Shown: positions 20,256 to 27,277 of the stretch, in pieces
Numbering within the stretch: the first letter of the stretch is position 1
Layout: each line of letters starts with the position of its first letter
NCBI RefSeq assembly: GCF_000317125.1
Contig: NC_019695.1
Span: 3,956,336-4,020,335, forward strand
Direction: 5' to 3'
From: Chroococcidiopsis thermalis PCC 7203
Lineage (GTDB): Bacteria; Cyanobacteriota; Cyanobacteriia; Cyanobacteriales; Chroococcidiopsidaceae
Length of the DNA: 64,000 bases
Translations under genes and position numbers: made by a program
The notes under the pieces: generated by a model
Told to the model about the DNA's origin: nothing
The model's database searches: none
Seen by the model: the letters and a program-made list of their open reading frames with translations, nothing else

Positions 20256-21206
20256 TTAAACAGGATCGACCGCTACAAAAGTCGTAAAAATCTTGTCACC
20301 CACATCGTTAATTTGATGCTGGATGCGATCGAGAAATTCATGCAGTCCAATATTGACAATTTCCTCAATTGTGATGTATTCCAATTCCGATCGCGATCGA
20401 CCGAGTGCGCGTTCGGCGGGATTTTGCCAAGTACCGATGGGAGTTCCAGTAATTTGATGTAGCGATTGCTCTGCTTGGAGTAAGCAAAATTGAATCGAAC
20501 GAGGAAATTCGCGGTTGAGAATCAAAAATTCCGCTACAGCTGTAGGCGCAATGCGATGTCGTCCCCATTTACGATACATCTCGTAAGCACTCGCAGATTT
20601 TAGCAATGCTATCCATTGCAACTGGTCTAGAGTCGTCCCCACATCTTTAGCTGAAGGTAGCAAAATATAGTATTTTACATCTAAAATTCGAGCAGTTTTA
20701 TCAGCCCGTTCTAACAAACGTCCAATTTGTCCGAAATGCCAACCTTCATTGTGCGTCATGGTTGCATTCATCACCCCAGCAAACAAGTGACTGGCTAGCT
20801 TGACTTCAGCAAAAAAATTCGACCATTCAGGAACGGTATGAGATTGAGCCGCTTCCTTGACTAGGAAGTAAAATGCATTTACCCGTTCCCACATTTCCGA
20901 GGAAATAATTTCACGGATCGATCGCGCGTTCTCTCTAGCAGCAAACAAGCAAGAAGCGATCGAATTAGAATATTCGCGATCGAACGTTAAGAACTGAATC
21001 ACATTTTCTGCTGTCGCTTCACCGTAGCGTTCTTGAAATAATGATAAATCTCCTGTAGTTAAAATCAAAGGTTTCCACTGCTGCGCTTCTCCAGTAGGAG
21101 CATCCAACAATAGAGTTAAATTAACATCAATAAAACGGGCAACATTTTCTGCCCTTTCTACATAGCGGTTTAACCAGTAAATTGAATCAGCAACTCTGCT
21201 TAGCAT
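20256..21206 (-). CDS. Alpha-E domain protein (DUF403, COG2307)
   Basis: This 316-residue, all-helical protein opens with MLSRVADSIYWLNRYVERAENVAR, the hallmark of the alpha-E family. Such proteins occur next to circularly permuted ATP-grasp enzymes in gene sets predicted to make or modify a short peptide, sometimes with a transglutaminase-like protein and the proteasome homologue Anbu. Its partner lies 86 bp upstream at 21293-22726 in the same direction, with short repeats in the gap. No Anbu or transglutaminase gene adjoins here. Confidence 0.9.
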   Translation of the reverse strand: MLSRVADSIYWLNRYVERAENVARFIDVNLTLLLDAPTGEAQQWKPLILTTGDLSLFQERYGEATAENVIQFLTFDREYSNSIASCLFAARENARSIREIISSEMWERVNAFYFLVKEAAQSHTVPEWSNFFAEVKLASHLFAGVMNATMTHNEGWHFGQIGRLLERADKTARILDVKYYILLPSAKDVGTTLDQLQWIALLKSASAYEMYRKWGRHRIAPTAVAEFLILNREFPRSIQFCLLQAEQSLHQITGTPIGTWQNPAERALGRSRSELEYITIEEIVNIGLHEFLDRIQHQINDVGDKIFTTFVAVDPV

Positions 21207-21292
21207 AATCGGTTATCAGTTATCAGTTATCAGCGATCGGTGGCTAGTAGCTGAATTCTTCATCTAGCCACTAGCCACCAGCCACTATCCAC

Positions 21293-22726
21293 TCATTTAC
21301 ATACCACCCAAGTATCTTTACTCCCTCCACCTTGGGAGGAGTTGACTACTAGAGAACCTCTTCTAAGGGCGACGCGGGTTAGTCCACCTGGATTGACGTA
21401 AATTTCTTTGCCGTAGAGGATATACGGTCGCAAGTCTACGTGACAGCCTTCAAATTGGTCTTCTAGAATGGTTGGCACGCGAGACAAACACAAAGTTGGT
21501 TGGGCAATGTAGTTGCGCGGACTAGCCTTAATTTTTTCGGCAAATTCTTGGCGTTGTTCTGGGGTGGCAGAAGAACCAATGAGCATTCCGTAGCCACCAG
21601 ATTCATTCGCTGCTTTGACAACTAACTTATCGAGATTTGCCAAAACATGAGCCTGTTGATTAGGTTCCCAGCAGAGGTATGTAGGAACGTTAGATAAAAT
21701 CGGTTCTTCGCCCAAATAGTAGCGGATCATCGCTGGAACGTATGCGTAGATGACTTTATCATCAGCTACACCAGTTCCTAGTGCGTTAGCCAGCCCCACT
21801 CTACCCGCACGATAGACTTCCATCAGTCCAGGTATACCTAATAAAGAATCAGGACGAAATGCTAACGGATCGATAAAATCGTCGTCAATCCGGCGATAAA
21901 CGGCATCAACGCGCTTTAAGCCTTTGGTAGTCCGCATTTGTAGGTAGCCATCCGCCACTACCAAATCTCGTCCTTCTACCAACTCCACACCCATCTGCTG
22001 CGCCAAGAAGGAATGCTCGAAGTAAGCTGAGTTATAAATTCCTGGTGTTAAAACAACTACCGTTGGATCGTAGAGTTGAGGAGGAGCCAGGTTGAGTAGG
22101 GTTTCTAGTAAATGACTGGGGTATTCCTCAACGGGCTGAATTGTCATCGACTCAAAGACTTTGGGAAAAGTGCTTTTCATGACGCGACGATTTTCCAGCA
22201 CGTAGGAAACGCCAGAAGGACAGCGCATATTATCTTCTAGCACGTACCAGCGACCATCGCGATCGCGCACTAGGTCTGTTCCGGTAATATGACACCAGAT
22301 CCCACCAGGCGGTTTTAGTCCAATACAAGGCTTTAAAAATCCCGTAGCCGATTCGATTAACTCGCTCGGAATCACGCTATCTCTGATAATTTTCTGCTCG
22401 TTATAAATATCGTTGATAAACAAGTTCAGGGCAAAGATCCGTTGCTTCAGTCCCTTTTCTAGAGACTGCCATTCTTCGGCTGAGACAATGCGAGGAATGA
22501 TGTCAAAGGGAAAAATCCTTTCTGTACCTTCACCCTCACTGTAGACATTAAAGGTGACTCCCATGTTCATCAAAGCAATTTGCGCTGCTTGATGTCGCCG
22601 TTGTAATTCTCCAGCTGGTAGAGAATTAATTCTTTCTAGCAGTGGAATTGCCTCCGCACGAGGTTTGTCTTTAGTGACGAATAGCTCGTCGTAAAAGTCT
22701 CCTGGTTCGTAATTGTCGAATCGCAC
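21293..22726 (-). CDS. Circularly permuted ATP-grasp protein (COG2308)
   Basis: This 477-residue protein matches the circularly permuted type-2 ATP-grasp family, predicted to form amide bonds in peptide-like products. Recognisable blocks are the N-terminal YDELF and [53 protein letters not shown], and the ATP-binding [22 protein letters not shown] and CHVDLRPY. It is the first gene of a two-gene operon with the alpha-E protein. A heptameric AAGTCGT repeat run (about 22753-22786) sits just upstream of the start. Confidence 0.9.
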
Positions 22727-24043: not shown

Positions 24044-26086
24044 TTAGGAAGAGTGATTGATGGGCGTTGATTCTGGTAAGTTGATAGCAGGATTGCGCGT
24101 GAAGAACCCTACGGGCATCAACTTAAAACCAGCATGGTGAACGGGCATAACAGGCCAGTCTTCAGGGCGAGGAACGTGGGTAGTACCGAACGTGTACCAA
24201 GCTACCAAGTCTTGACCTATAAGCGGTTCATTATCCGCAACAAGGGTAGGTAAGCCCTGTTGGGAGTTGCTTTGGTTGGGATATTCTCCTCCAGCGTGGA
24301 GTTCTTTAGGTTTATACTTAGTCACCCAGAAATGGTGAGTAGCGAAGCCCGCGCGATCGCGAATTGTTGCGTCTTGGCTGGGAAAAAAGACTGTATTTCC
24401 AGATGGCATGAGCATATAACTCGTAGGTGCGCCGAGTTGATTTTTGCGAGTCGTACTGGCGATCGCCCATTTTCGATTTTCTGCCATACTGAGATCTCGG
24501 ACGGCGCTTTTTTCTGTTGTTAGCGGCGCGTCTTTGGCAACAAATGCATTGCCTTGAGGGTTATTTGCACCGATAGGTAGGGATTGAACCGTCATTTCCA
24601 TCGGCATATTTGCTTCACCGTCTACATCCAGATCTAACCGAAAGTTAAAAAAGTGCTGGTGATTGACACCGACAATGTTTTTGGCGATTAACTTGCCGTA
24701 GGTATCTCGATTTGCAGTGGTGACAGAATCCGATCCTTGGGCTAGAACAATTCCATGCAAGTCAGCACGAACGTCTAAAGAACCATCCTGGTGAAAGATC
24801 CAGTTGATGGCATAGTCGTAATTACCGATCGCGGCTGTCGTTGTGACAATGAGCTGGCGATCGCGTCGGACATCCTTGCGTTCGGATCTATAATCGTAGT
24901 GCTTCCACAACACGCCATTATCTTTTTCATAGATCCCGATAACATCAGGCATGGCATAAGGTTTGCCTTGCGAGTCTGCTAGCACTGCATCTAGCAATAC
25001 CCCATTTTCAGGAACTTCTTTGCCTAGTTCCTGAGTATTAGTTAGCGTACCGAAATTGTATTCTCCGACATCAAAGGCATTGCGAAACGACCACTGCGGA
25101 TTGGGATCGCCATAGGGAACGACCATTTCAGATAGGCTGGCACGATACATGACTGGACGAAATTCGCGACCGTCTTCATGCTGCATTTGGTAAAGGATCA
25201 AGCCATCCCGTGGATGCATCATGTAGCGGAATTTCCACCCCTGCCAACTCACTTCATTACCATTGAGTTTGAAGGTGTGACCGTTTGGTTGCAGGATTTT
25301 TAGTAACTTGGCTGCCGTTCTTAGGGGGCTAAGCGATCGCGGATCGTAGTCCCAATTTTCCTTGGAGAGAGCTACGACACCCGTATCGCTAAAACTAGCC
25401 AGTTTTTTCGCATTGAGATCGACAGTTGCAACGACTCCCTCTATTGGCGTGCCGTAATAGTTCCAGCGATCGCCTTTGAAGTAAGATAACGTGCGACACA
25501 GACGCGCCCCACTTGACTTTTCTGCTTCAGTCACCAGCCCTACTGCCCAGCCTTCAACGACAACTTGTTTGAAGTCAGTAATGCCTCGCTTCCTCATGGC
25601 TGCTTGCCAGCGCGGATCGGCTTTAGTGACTGCCGCTGCTATTTCATATTCTGGTTCCATGATGGCTGGCTGCACGCCAGGAATCTCTTGCCAGGATGAT
25701 AAAACCGCAGCTTTAGCTTTAGTTTTCGGTTTTAAACTTACAACAGCTTCGTAGGTTTTGTTTTGAGAGCGATCGTAAACCACAGCAAACACTTCTCGTC
25801 TGAAGGGTTGCCCTGGCTTGAAATTCAAGACTTCTGTTTTATCTGGTTCATTCAGAGCAACGATGGGAAAGTGAATTTCCTGTTGGGGCATTTTTTGTTT
25901 AATGAGTGCAACGGCTGCTGTAATCTCTTGTGCCGTTAATGAATCGAGTGGATGAGTAGGGGTGACTATTCGAGCTAGAGAGATTTGAATCGAACCGATG
26001 GCGATCGCGACTACGATAAACATGGCTGTAGATAACCAAAATTGCTTTCGCCGCTTCGAGAATAACTGGGAAAGAATTTGCAACAT
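24044..26086 (-). CDS. Copper (primary) amine oxidase, membrane-anchored
   Basis: Copper amine oxidases oxidise primary amines to aldehydes, releasing ammonia and H2O2, using a topaquinone made from a Tyr in a T-x-x-N-Y-[DE] context. Here that Tyr lies in GNYDYAINW (about residue 423). Copper ligands appear as HQHFF (about 484-488) and a C-terminal His in HVPRPEDWPVMPVHH, and FDVGEYNFG holds the likely catalytic Asp. Residues 15-37 form an N-terminal membrane anchor or signal, so the enzyme should act outside the cytoplasm. The 680-residue length is normal. It follows the hexapeptide-repeat gene by 18 bp and is probably co-transcribed with it. Confidence 0.9.
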   Translation of the reverse strand: MLQILSQLFSKRRKQFWLSTAMFIVVAIAIGSIQISLARIVTPTHPLDSLTAQEITAAVALIKQKMPQQEIHFPIVALNEPDKTEVLNFKPGQPFRREVFAVVYDRSQNKTYEAVVSLKPKTKAKAAVLSSWQEIPGVQPAIMEPEYEIAAAVTKADPRWQAAMRKRGITDFKQVVVEGWAVGLVTEAEKSSGARLCRTLSYFKGDRWNYYGTPIEGVVATVDLNAKKLASFSDTGVVALSKENWDYDPRSLSPLRTAAKLLKILQPNGHTFKLNGNEVSWQGWKFRYMMHPRDGLILYQMQHEDGREFRPVMYRASLSEMVVPYGDPNPQWSFRNAFDVGEYNFGTLTNTQELGKEVPENGVLLDAVLADSQGKPYAMPDVIGIYEKDNGVLWKHYDYRSERKDVRRDRQLIVTTTAAIGNYDYAINWIFHQDGSLDVRADLHGIVLAQGSDSVTTANRDTYGKLIAKNIVGVNHQHFFNFRLDLDVDGEANMPMEMTVQSLPIGANNPQGNAFVAKDAPLTTEKSAVRDLSMAENRKWAIASTTRKNQLGAPTSYMLMPSGNTVFFPSQDATIRDRAGFATHHFWVTKYKPKELHAGGEYPNQSNSQQGLPTLVADNEPLIGQDLVAWYTFGTTHVPRPEDWPVMPVHHAGFKLMPVGFFTRNPAINLPESTPINHSS

Positions 26087-26104: not shown

Positions 26105-27277
26105 TCAGATTTGTAGCCTTGGCGATCGCACTAAGGCATCTGCTTGCTTCTGGGTGGTAATAATAGCGCGATCGGGAACTTTTACGCCGTTTTGCAGCGT
26201 TACGCCCACCACTATAGCCTCGCTGCCGATGGTCACGTCATTACCAACTTTAGAACGAAATAATACAGTATCATCTCCAATTGTGAGATTATCGCCAACT
26301 TCGAGAGGCCCGTGAAAAACGATGTTATCGCTCGTATCTAAGTTTTTACCAATATGGATGCTCGTACCTTTGAGCGCATGAAACGTGACTCGATCCTCAA
26401 TTTGGGCATTCTCTCCAATAATAATTGGCGTGCCTTCATCAGCACGAATTGAAGTTCGCTGTCCCACGGTGCTATTATTGCCAAGCCTGACATCTCCAAC
26501 GATGCGAGCAAACTCATCGAGTTTCACATTCTGACCGATCGTGGGTTTGACTGGTTTCGGATTCCAAGATGTTTTTGGTGCTGTACTAACACCCGTTACG
26601 GCATCAAATCCTGCTTCTTCGTATAGGTGGCTGTAGTTTTCAGCAAACTCGGCGTTGACTTCTAATACTTCTTCTTGAAACTTAGAATTAGCTTCCGTTT
26701 TGAGCGGGAGAGCATCAGCCTGCGCTTGAGTCGTAATAACTGCCCCAATTGGTACTAAACGGTTTTTGCCAATCCGCACGTTCGACAGAATCGCACCATG
26801 CAGTATAAAAGCACCGTCTTCTAGCACTACGTTGCGCAAGCGAGTATGAAAACCGATAAAGGTGAAGTTGCCAATTTGTGAATTCTCAATATTTGCCTGA
26901 TGAGCAATACTCACTCGTTCGCCAGTACTACTTGATTTTGCTGCACAAGCACTTGGAGGAGCCGTATTTCTACGGAGGACTAGAAATAAAATATTGTCTT
27001 GAAAATTAGTCCGATCGCCAATACAAATGCGAGTGTCGGGTTCCGCTCGGATGATAGTGTTACTAGCAATAAAAACTTTTCGCCCAATTAAAACATCACC
27101 GAAAAACTCATCTAACGGACTAATAAAGCTAGAATTAACTACGATTTTAAATGGTTCAAATAAACTGGTCGAACCCTGAGAATGAACGTTAACAACAATC
27201 GTATTTAGTGTAAAAATAATAACAATCAGACCGAGGAACACGAAAAGCTTCAACCTACTTTTAGCATTTTTTAACAT
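26105..27277 (-). CDS. Membrane-anchored tandem gamma-carbonic-anhydrase-like protein
   Basis: This 390-residue protein has an N-terminal hydrophobic anchor (about 11-30) and two left-handed beta-helix (hexapeptide) domains, about 55-195 and 250-390. Both resemble the gamma-CA domain of Cam and CcmM and both end in an ITTQ(A/K)QADAL motif. Repeat 2 keeps R278, D280, H300 (VTFHA) and H322 (FHGP) but has D317 where the middle zinc His is expected. Repeat 1 keeps H126 (SIAHQ) and Q93-D94 but lacks the other two His. It is the first gene of a likely operon with the copper amine oxidase. Activity is uncertain. Confidence 0.75.
   Translation of the reverse strand: MLKNAKSRLKLFVFLGLIVIIFTLNTIVVNVHSQGSTSLFEPFKIVVNSSFISPLDEFFGDVLIGRKVFIASNTIIRAEPDTRICIGDRTNFQDNILFLVLRRNTAPPSACAAKSSSTGERVSIAHQANIENSQIGNFTFIGFHTRLRNVVLEDGAFILHGAILSNVRIGKNRLVPIGAVITTQAQADALPLKTEANSKFQEEVLEVNAEFAENYSHLYEEAGFDAVTGVSTAPKTSWNPKPVKPTIGQNVKLDEFARIVGDVRLGNNSTVGQRTSIRADEGTPIIIGENAQIEDRVTFHALKGTSIHIGKNLDTSDNIVFHGPLEVGDNLTIGDDTVLFRSKVGNDVTIGSEAIVVGVTLQNGVKVPDRAIITTQKQADALVRSPRLQI

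What the first reader, a model, noticed from the sequence alone, without database searches (positions are those of the whole stretch)
26105..27277. Tandem gamma-carbonic-anhydrase-like protein with zinc ligands split between repeats
In Cam-type gamma-CAs, zinc is held by two His of one subunit and one His of the neighbour. Here repeat 2 keeps the equivalents of the first pair (H300, H322), and repeat 1 keeps only the equivalent of the neighbour's His (H126). Each repeat lacks exactly what the other supplies. A single chain might thus form one hetero-site between its own repeats or with another copy. The protein is also membrane-anchored, unlike CcmM. A secreted, internally asymmetric gamma-CA would be new to me.
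Basis: partly seen in the sequence, partly recalled or inferred. Interest (0 to 1): 0.75.

Follow-up and report, generated by a model that had tools for sequence, protein, structure and literature searches.

The report
Single-chain split-site gamma carbonic anhydrase
A probably exported cyanobacterial protein contains two copies of a carbonic-anhydrase domain, and each copy has kept only one half of the zinc-binding site, so the protein probably builds one enzyme site from two unlike halves.

Summary
The 390-aa ORF (26105-27277, minus) is two gamma-carbonic-anhydrase-like repeats. R1 keeps only the Cam His117 equivalent (H126); R2 keeps those of His81 and His122 (H300, H322). All 34 distinct orthologs complete through both repeats keep all three His, and the empty positions never hold His.

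The split goes beyond histidines. Mapped onto published gamma-CA interface residues (PMC8000050), R2 conserves one side of the subunit interface (R59, D61, E62, H81, H122) and R1 the other (Q75, D76, H117), with the C-terminal helix that R2 lacks. The two unused sides are more variable than other positions. This polarity survives removal of ligands and catalytic residues (60 of 50,000 permutations with my first selection of positions; 1 of 50,000 with the full one-sided lists).

Best reading: an exported gamma-CA with one asymmetric site, probably formed within one chain. In one lineage a beta-CA gene with an export-like leader follows 9-11 bp downstream. Plant complex I gamma-CA uses the same logic in separate subunits. 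Both AlphaFold2 models failed, so contact, metal and activity are unproven. The membrane anchor is not established; a cleavable signal peptide fits as well.

The parts
26105..27277 (-). ORF of the tandem gamma-CA-like protein, 390 aa
27176..27277 (-). Residues 1-34: basic then hydrophobic N-terminus, likely signal peptide (or anchor)
   Evidence: N-terminal comparison of the A4 rows; no predictor run
26627..27142 (-). Repeat 1 (R1), residues about 46-217, with the C-terminal helix segment
   Evidence: NCBIfam match 46-217, alignment A4
26996..27007 (-). R1 N91-F92-Q93-D94 (Cam N73, Q75, D76 equivalents)
   Evidence: N, Q and D each 39/39
26900..26902 (-). R1 H126, Cam H117 equivalent
   Evidence: 39/39
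26612..26695 (-). Helix segment of R1, residues 195-222, with invariant N208 (Cam N202 equivalent by alignment)
   Evidence: alignment to Cam; N208 39/39; absent after R2
26945..27025 (-). Stretch of R1 from C85 to C111, two invariant Cys, possible disulfide
   Evidence: both in 34 of 34; disulfide is inference
26129..26596 (-). Repeat 2 (R2), residues about 228-383, with the Cam-like N-terminal strap and no C-terminal helix
26435..26446 (-). R2 R278-A279-D280-E281 (Cam R59, D61, E62 equivalents)
   Evidence: R, D and E each 39/39
26378..26380 (-). R2 H300, Cam H81 equivalent
   Evidence: 39/39
26312..26314 (-). R2 H322, Cam H122 equivalent
   Evidence: 39/39

Best explanation
It is an exported gamma-class carbonic anhydrase whose two homologous beta-helix domains have specialised into complementary half-sites. 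R2 supplies the interface side with R278, D280, E281, H300 and H322; R1 supplies the opposite side with N91, Q93, D94, H126 and the C-terminal helix (N208). Together they form one three-histidine metal site at one R2(side A)-R1(side B) interface, most simply within one chain, which interconverts CO2 and bicarbonate outside the cytoplasm. Shown: homology of both repeats, the residue split, its fixation in 34 orthologs, and the conservation polarity of the whole interface. Inferred: physical contact, formation in cis, metal, catalysis, location and physiological role.
For: Three His fixed in 34 of 34 distinct orthologs. Second-shell residues follow the same split: R1 N91/Q93/D94/N208 and R2 R278/D280/E281 are 39/39, while their counterparts vary (R1 R77 33/39; R2 292 holds seven residue types). 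Interface sides taken from PMC8000050: weighted entropy R2 side A 0.21 and R1 side B 0.19 against R1 side A 1.02 and R2 side B 0.89, other positions 0.69/0.59; permutations 7, 25 and 60 of 50,000 for all positions, without ligands, without ligands and catalytic residues; with the full one-sided lists 1, 0 and 1 of 50,000. CcmM rows conserve both sides. R2 lacks the side-B helix and R1 carries it. Repeat order fits: in known trimers the N-terminus of the side-A chain touches the C-terminus of the side-B chain (PMC8000050). A beta-CA gene lies 9-11 bp downstream in four loci of one lineage.
Against: No usable structural model: job 1 pLDDT 53.6; job 2 pLDDT 74 and pTM 0.77 but no gamma-CA among the 50 Foldseek rows shown. 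The proton-shuttle position E84 is K in 38 of 39. R2 side B keeps E294 (37/39), D295 (38/39) and D317 (38/39), so that side is not wholly relaxed. R1 side A is not clearly more polar than R2 side A. The slide control is not clean: lists moved by +1 column still give T 1.49 against 1.77. Some copies are broken or partial (five found), so the gene is dispensable or poorly sequenced there. Export is not proven, and the window's own N-terminus has no A-x-A site.
Confidence: 0.66

Rival explanations
1. R2 repeats of three chains form a homotrimer with a 2-His-1-Asp metal site (H300 and H322 of one R2, D317 of the next), and R1 is a scaffold.
For: D317 lies exactly at the H117 position and is D in 38 of 39 rows (N in one); E294 and D295 nearby are also conserved.
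Against: The rest of R2 side B is variable and 49% charged, against 11-12% in R1, CcmM and Cam-like rows, and R2 has no C-terminal helix. It leaves the fixation of H126, N91, Q93 and N208 in R1 unexplained.
Confidence: 0.1
2. A closed mixed trimer: R1 and R2 of neighbouring chains fill canonical three-domain rings, each ring with exactly one live site (as in plant complex I); the site forms between chains or within one.
For: Gamma-CAs are described as trimers with sites between subunits (PMC8000050), and plant complex I has mixed rings with one zinc site (PMC7447434).
Against: The two unused sides (R1 side A, R2 side B) are more variable than other positions, and R2 side B is charged, unexpected if both were buried in a conserved ring. 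This bears on the third position, not on the split site.
Confidence: 0.3
3. The protein is a degenerate, non-catalytic gamma-CA-like fold used for binding (for example bicarbonate or a partner), and the His split is drift.
For: Many gamma-CA relatives show no activity (PMC7199487, passages read); E84 position is K; complementarity of the His alone has odds of 1 in 3.
Against: Fixation of the three His and of the second-shell residues in 34 of 34, and polarity of the whole interface, are not expected of drift. Binding without catalysis remains possible.
Confidence: 0.15

Closest known systems
Plant mitochondrial complex I gamma-CA heterotrimer (CA1/CA2/CAL2 in Vigna; PMC7447434, PMC7567890, passages read)
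   Same: Gamma-CA domains that are unlike each other; only one interface keeps all three His and the zinc.
   Different: Three separate chains in a matrix-side ring of complex I; here two repeats are in one chain, the split is strictly complementary, and an export-like N-terminus is present.
Cam of Methanosarcina thermophila (PMC4519908, PMC5746736, passages read)
   Same: R2 resembles Cam most among solved proteins; equivalents of R59, D61, E62, N73, Q75, D76, H81, H117, H122 and N202 all exist once the two repeats are combined.
   Different: Cam is a homotrimer of single-domain chains with three equal sites and E84 in an acidic loop; here one site at most per chain, K at E84, no acidic loop.
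CcmM gamma-CA domain (beta-carboxysome)
   Same: Homologous fold and site; best NCBIfam match by E-value.
   Different: CcmM carries RbcS-like repeats and works in the carboxysome; the genome has its own CcmM (L002).
Extracytoplasmic cyanobacterial CAs EcaA (alpha) and EcaB (beta) (PMC10096703, PMC9865033, passages read)
   Same: Predicted place of action; a beta-CA with an export-like leader is the next gene in four loci of one lineage.
   Different: Unrelated folds; whether that beta-CA is EcaB was not tested.

Membership tests
Gamma-class carbonic anhydrase (Cam/CamH) | Sequence homology to gamma-CA over the domain | tested here: met
   (both repeats)
Gamma-class carbonic anhydrase (Cam/CamH) | Curated family cut-offs (NCBIfam) | tested here: not met
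   198 of 550 bits for CcmM, 179 of 380 for carb_anhyd
Gamma-class carbonic anhydrase (Cam/CamH) | Three zinc His in one domain sequence (two act in one subunit, one in the next) | tested here: not met
   met only across the two repeats: H126 in R1, H300 and H322 in R2
Gamma-class carbonic anhydrase (Cam/CamH) | Second-shell residues R59, D61, Q75, D76 | tested here: met
   across the two repeats, each 39/39 on the retained side
Gamma-class carbonic anhydrase (Cam/CamH) | E84 / acidic loop (Cam subclass only) | tested here: not met
   K303 in 38 of 39
Gamma-class carbonic anhydrase (Cam/CamH) | Left-handed beta-helix fold | tested here: inconclusive
   sequence homology strong; AlphaFold2 models unusable
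Gamma-class carbonic anhydrase (Cam/CamH) | Trimer, metal, CO2 hydration | not testable with these tools
   needs protein
CcmM | RbcS-like repeats after the gamma-CA domain | tested here: not met
   no such domain in 390 aa; own CcmM is 566 aa
Exported protein | Cleavable signal peptide | tested here: inconclusive
   N-termini compared by eye and pattern only

The most novel reading that the evidence does not exclude
A gamma-carbonic anhydrase that has left the obligate trimer: one secreted chain whose two beta-helix domains pair through a single interface and form a single active site, while the two other former interface faces have become solvent-exposed.
Probability: 0.33. Interest if true: 0.8.

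Novelty: new variant of a known kind. Interest (0 to 1): 0.66.

Why it matters
Gamma-CAs are described as working only as trimers with sites between subunits (PMC8000050, passages read). A natural single-chain form with one split site would allow each side of the interface to be mutated alone, which a homotrimer does not allow, and would show how a symmetric oligomer turns into an asymmetric two-domain enzyme. It would also add a gamma-class candidate to the extracytoplasmic CAs of cyanobacteria: the review PMC10096703 (passages read) describes alpha and beta external forms and names CcmM as the gamma-class CA.

Tried and rejected
Structure prediction. Job 1 (A2, 30 rows) gave pLDDT 53.6. Job 2 (A5) used 34 tandem rows plus 36 C-terminal-half and 36 N-terminal-half fragments of CcmM/Cam-like proteins, chosen so that MAFFT laid them on R1 and R2 respectively. 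It gave pLDDT 74 and pTM 0.77, but no gamma-CA is among the 50 Foldseek rows shown of 234, and the best hits have TM of about 0.2 or less. I judge it wrong and drew no geometry from it. Model 1 matches Cam chains only at E 0.83 and weaker, 50 rows shown of 71. Coordinates are not supplied, so His-His distances could not be measured.

Origin. The domain tree (72 rows: 18 of the 34 tandem genes, 36 single-domain rows) makes R1 and R2 each one group (100/100) on long branches; R1 with CcmM has only 86/26, so the origin is unresolved.

Neighbourhood. No neighbour is shared by most of the 30 loci compared (flanks of 1.5-6 kb or less). The most frequent is a gene cluster in 10 of 30 whose one tested member is a creatininase.

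First permutation test. The first selection of interface positions (16 and 9) was mine from the published table, leaving out positions listed on both sides, the N-terminal and helix residues and some positions listed less often. I reran it with all one-sided beta-helix positions (23 and 10) of the gamma-PhCA and gamma-PmCA rows; the result was stronger.

Full report
What is there. The ORF at 26105-27277 (minus) is intact and codes for 390 aa. Pfam finds hexapeptide repeats. NCBIfam finds CcmM (E 1.7e-58) and carb_anhyd (8.8e-53), both below the curated cut-offs. Among solved proteins the best sequence matches are dGCA1 (4.7e-29), Cam (about 1e-28 to 1e-26) and CcmM (4e-24 to 5e-18). Repeat 1 (R1) spans about residues 46-217 and includes a segment that aligns with the C-terminal helix of Cam. 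Repeat 2 (R2) spans about 228-383, starts with a Cam-like strap (TSWNPxP) and ends without that helix. The same genome holds an ordinary CcmM (L002, 566 aa) and an ordinary Cam-like gamma-CA (L003, 259 aa), each with the three His motifs.

The split. H126 in R1 aligns with Cam H117; H300 and H322 in R2 align with H81 and H122. Alignment A4 has 39 rows; five are the same gene from a second collection, leaving 34 distinct genes complete through both repeats. H126, H300 and H322 are in all. The empty positions vary: R1@81 L/I/V/A, R1@122 K/E/R/V/Q, R2@117 D with one N. Only four His columns are filled in all 34: 126, 160, 300 and 322. Broken or partial copies were not counted: L015/L057 (frameshift), L055/L100 (frameshift), L054 (truncated inside R2), L016/L059 (fragment) and a remnant of 66 residues in G032. 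Two counted rows (L047, L014) come from bins labelled Burkholderiales and Tatlockia, which I take to be misbinned cyanobacterial contigs; this was not tested.

Bias check. The genome-contig scan used two peptide patterns, one of which contains H322. The orthologs from the genome search were found by whole-protein similarity and show the same residues, among them five rows with NVVFHGP, which that pattern would miss.

More than the histidines. PMC8000050 (passages and part of Table 2 seen) lists residues on each side of the gamma-CA subunit interface. Side A carries R45, D47, V48, H66, H69 and H89 (Cam R59, D61, E62, H81, E84, H122); side B carries Q60, D61, H84 and C-terminal helix residues (Cam Q75, D76, H117). 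I mapped the beta-helix positions onto both repeats through the shared anchors. With 16 side-A and 9 side-B positions the weighted mean entropy is 0.21 for R2 side A and 0.19 for R1 side B, but 1.02 for R1 side A and 0.89 for R2 side B; the 83 other positions average 0.69 (R1) and 0.59 (R2). Shuffled position labels reach this polarity in 7 of 50,000 trials, 25 without the three ligand positions, and 60 without ligand and catalytic positions. With all one-sided positions (23 and 10) the figures are 1, 0 and 1 of 50,000. Against the trend, R1 is the less variable repeat at 2 of 16 (4 of 23) side-A positions, and R2 at 1 of 9 (1 of 10) side-B positions. A slide control gives T 1.77 in register, 1.49 at +1, 0.91 or less at the other seven shifts, so the signal is local but not confined to the exact column. 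Shuffling treats positions as independent, which they are not quite.

Controls. CcmM (21 rows) conserves both sides (0.15 and 0.09, unweighted). Cam-like proteins (15 rows, four of which lack at least one zinc His) give 0.77 and 0.28. R2 side B is 49% charged against 11-12% for R1, CcmM and Cam-like rows, as expected of an exposed face. R1 side A does not differ clearly in hydropathy or charge from R2 side A. The reading that both unused faces are exposed is therefore better supported for R2 than for R1.

Why the repeat order fits. The same paper reports contacts, in the Thermus enzyme, between N-terminal residues of one chain and C-terminal residues of the next, and its table places them on sides A and B respectively. 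A chain in which the side-B domain (R1) precedes the side-A domain (R2) thus needs only a short linker to make the site within itself. This is inference.

Catalytic residues. Equivalents of R59, D61, E62 and two His (R2) and of N73, Q75, D76, H117 and N202 (R1) are each 39/39. E84 is K in 38 of 39; 9 of 36 single-domain rows also have K there. Activity is plausible, not shown.

Place and context. N-termini are basic then hydrophobic. A loose A-x-A pattern occurs in 31 of the 39 rows of A4, in several of them within the hydrophobic stretch; the window and its two same-genus relatives lack it, and five rows lack it because they start late. C85 and C111 are in all 34, which would allow a disulfide. 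In 4 of 30 loci (L013, L046, L049, L051; one lineage) a beta-CA gene follows 9-11 bp downstream on the same strand; its leader has a twin-arginine-like motif (motif recalled). In the window, L004 and L005 an amine oxidase gene follows instead.

Distribution. Matches at E <= 1e-40: 5 of 386 genomes of a phylum sample (own genome and one broken copy included) and 14 of 388 of a class sample (two broken copies included). The genome-contig scan gave 24 loci, 22 of them titled as cyanobacteria of many genera.

Structure. Both AlphaFold2 jobs failed to give a usable model. Contact between the half-sites rests on homology and conservation alone.

Literature. Seven searches showed me no title or abstract about a tandem or exported gamma-CA in cyanobacteria; the library is partial, the lists were capped, and full texts were not all read. 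PMC10096703 (passages) describes alpha EcaA and beta EcaB/CahB1 as external or thylakoid forms and CcmM as gamma-class. Plant complex I has a gamma-CA heterotrimer with one intact zinc interface (PMC7447434, PMC7567890; passages).

Noticed in passing
L013 787-1485, L046 1678-2373, L049 7174-7863, L051 4693-5382: A beta-CA (Pro_CA) gene with a twin-arginine-like leader follows the tandem gene by 9-11 bp in four loci of one lineage; in L059 a similar gene lies upstream of the fragment.
   Followed up: partly
L102 119-2244 (own genome): A bicarbonate transporter gene (Pfam Sbt_1, E 9.7e-125) precedes a beta-CA with a similar leader on the same strand. A second such beta-CA is at L101.
   Followed up: partly
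window 26798-26800 (H160): A fourth invariant His, at a position that maps to interface side B of R1 (Cam 152), outside the known zinc site.
   Followed up: no
window 26393-26398 and 26327-26329: E294, D295 and D317 on the otherwise variable side B of R2 are conserved; D317 sits exactly where the third zinc His would be.
   Followed up: partly
window 24044-26086: Copper amine oxidase gene starts 18 bp downstream of the tandem gene on the same strand; same order in L004 and L005.
   Followed up: partly
L062, L075, L077, L078: Single-domain Cam-like proteins of distant members of the phylum lack one or more zinc His and may be inactive relatives.
   Followed up: no
window 20256-22726: Alpha-E domain protein next to a circularly permuted ATP-grasp protein.
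   Followed up: no
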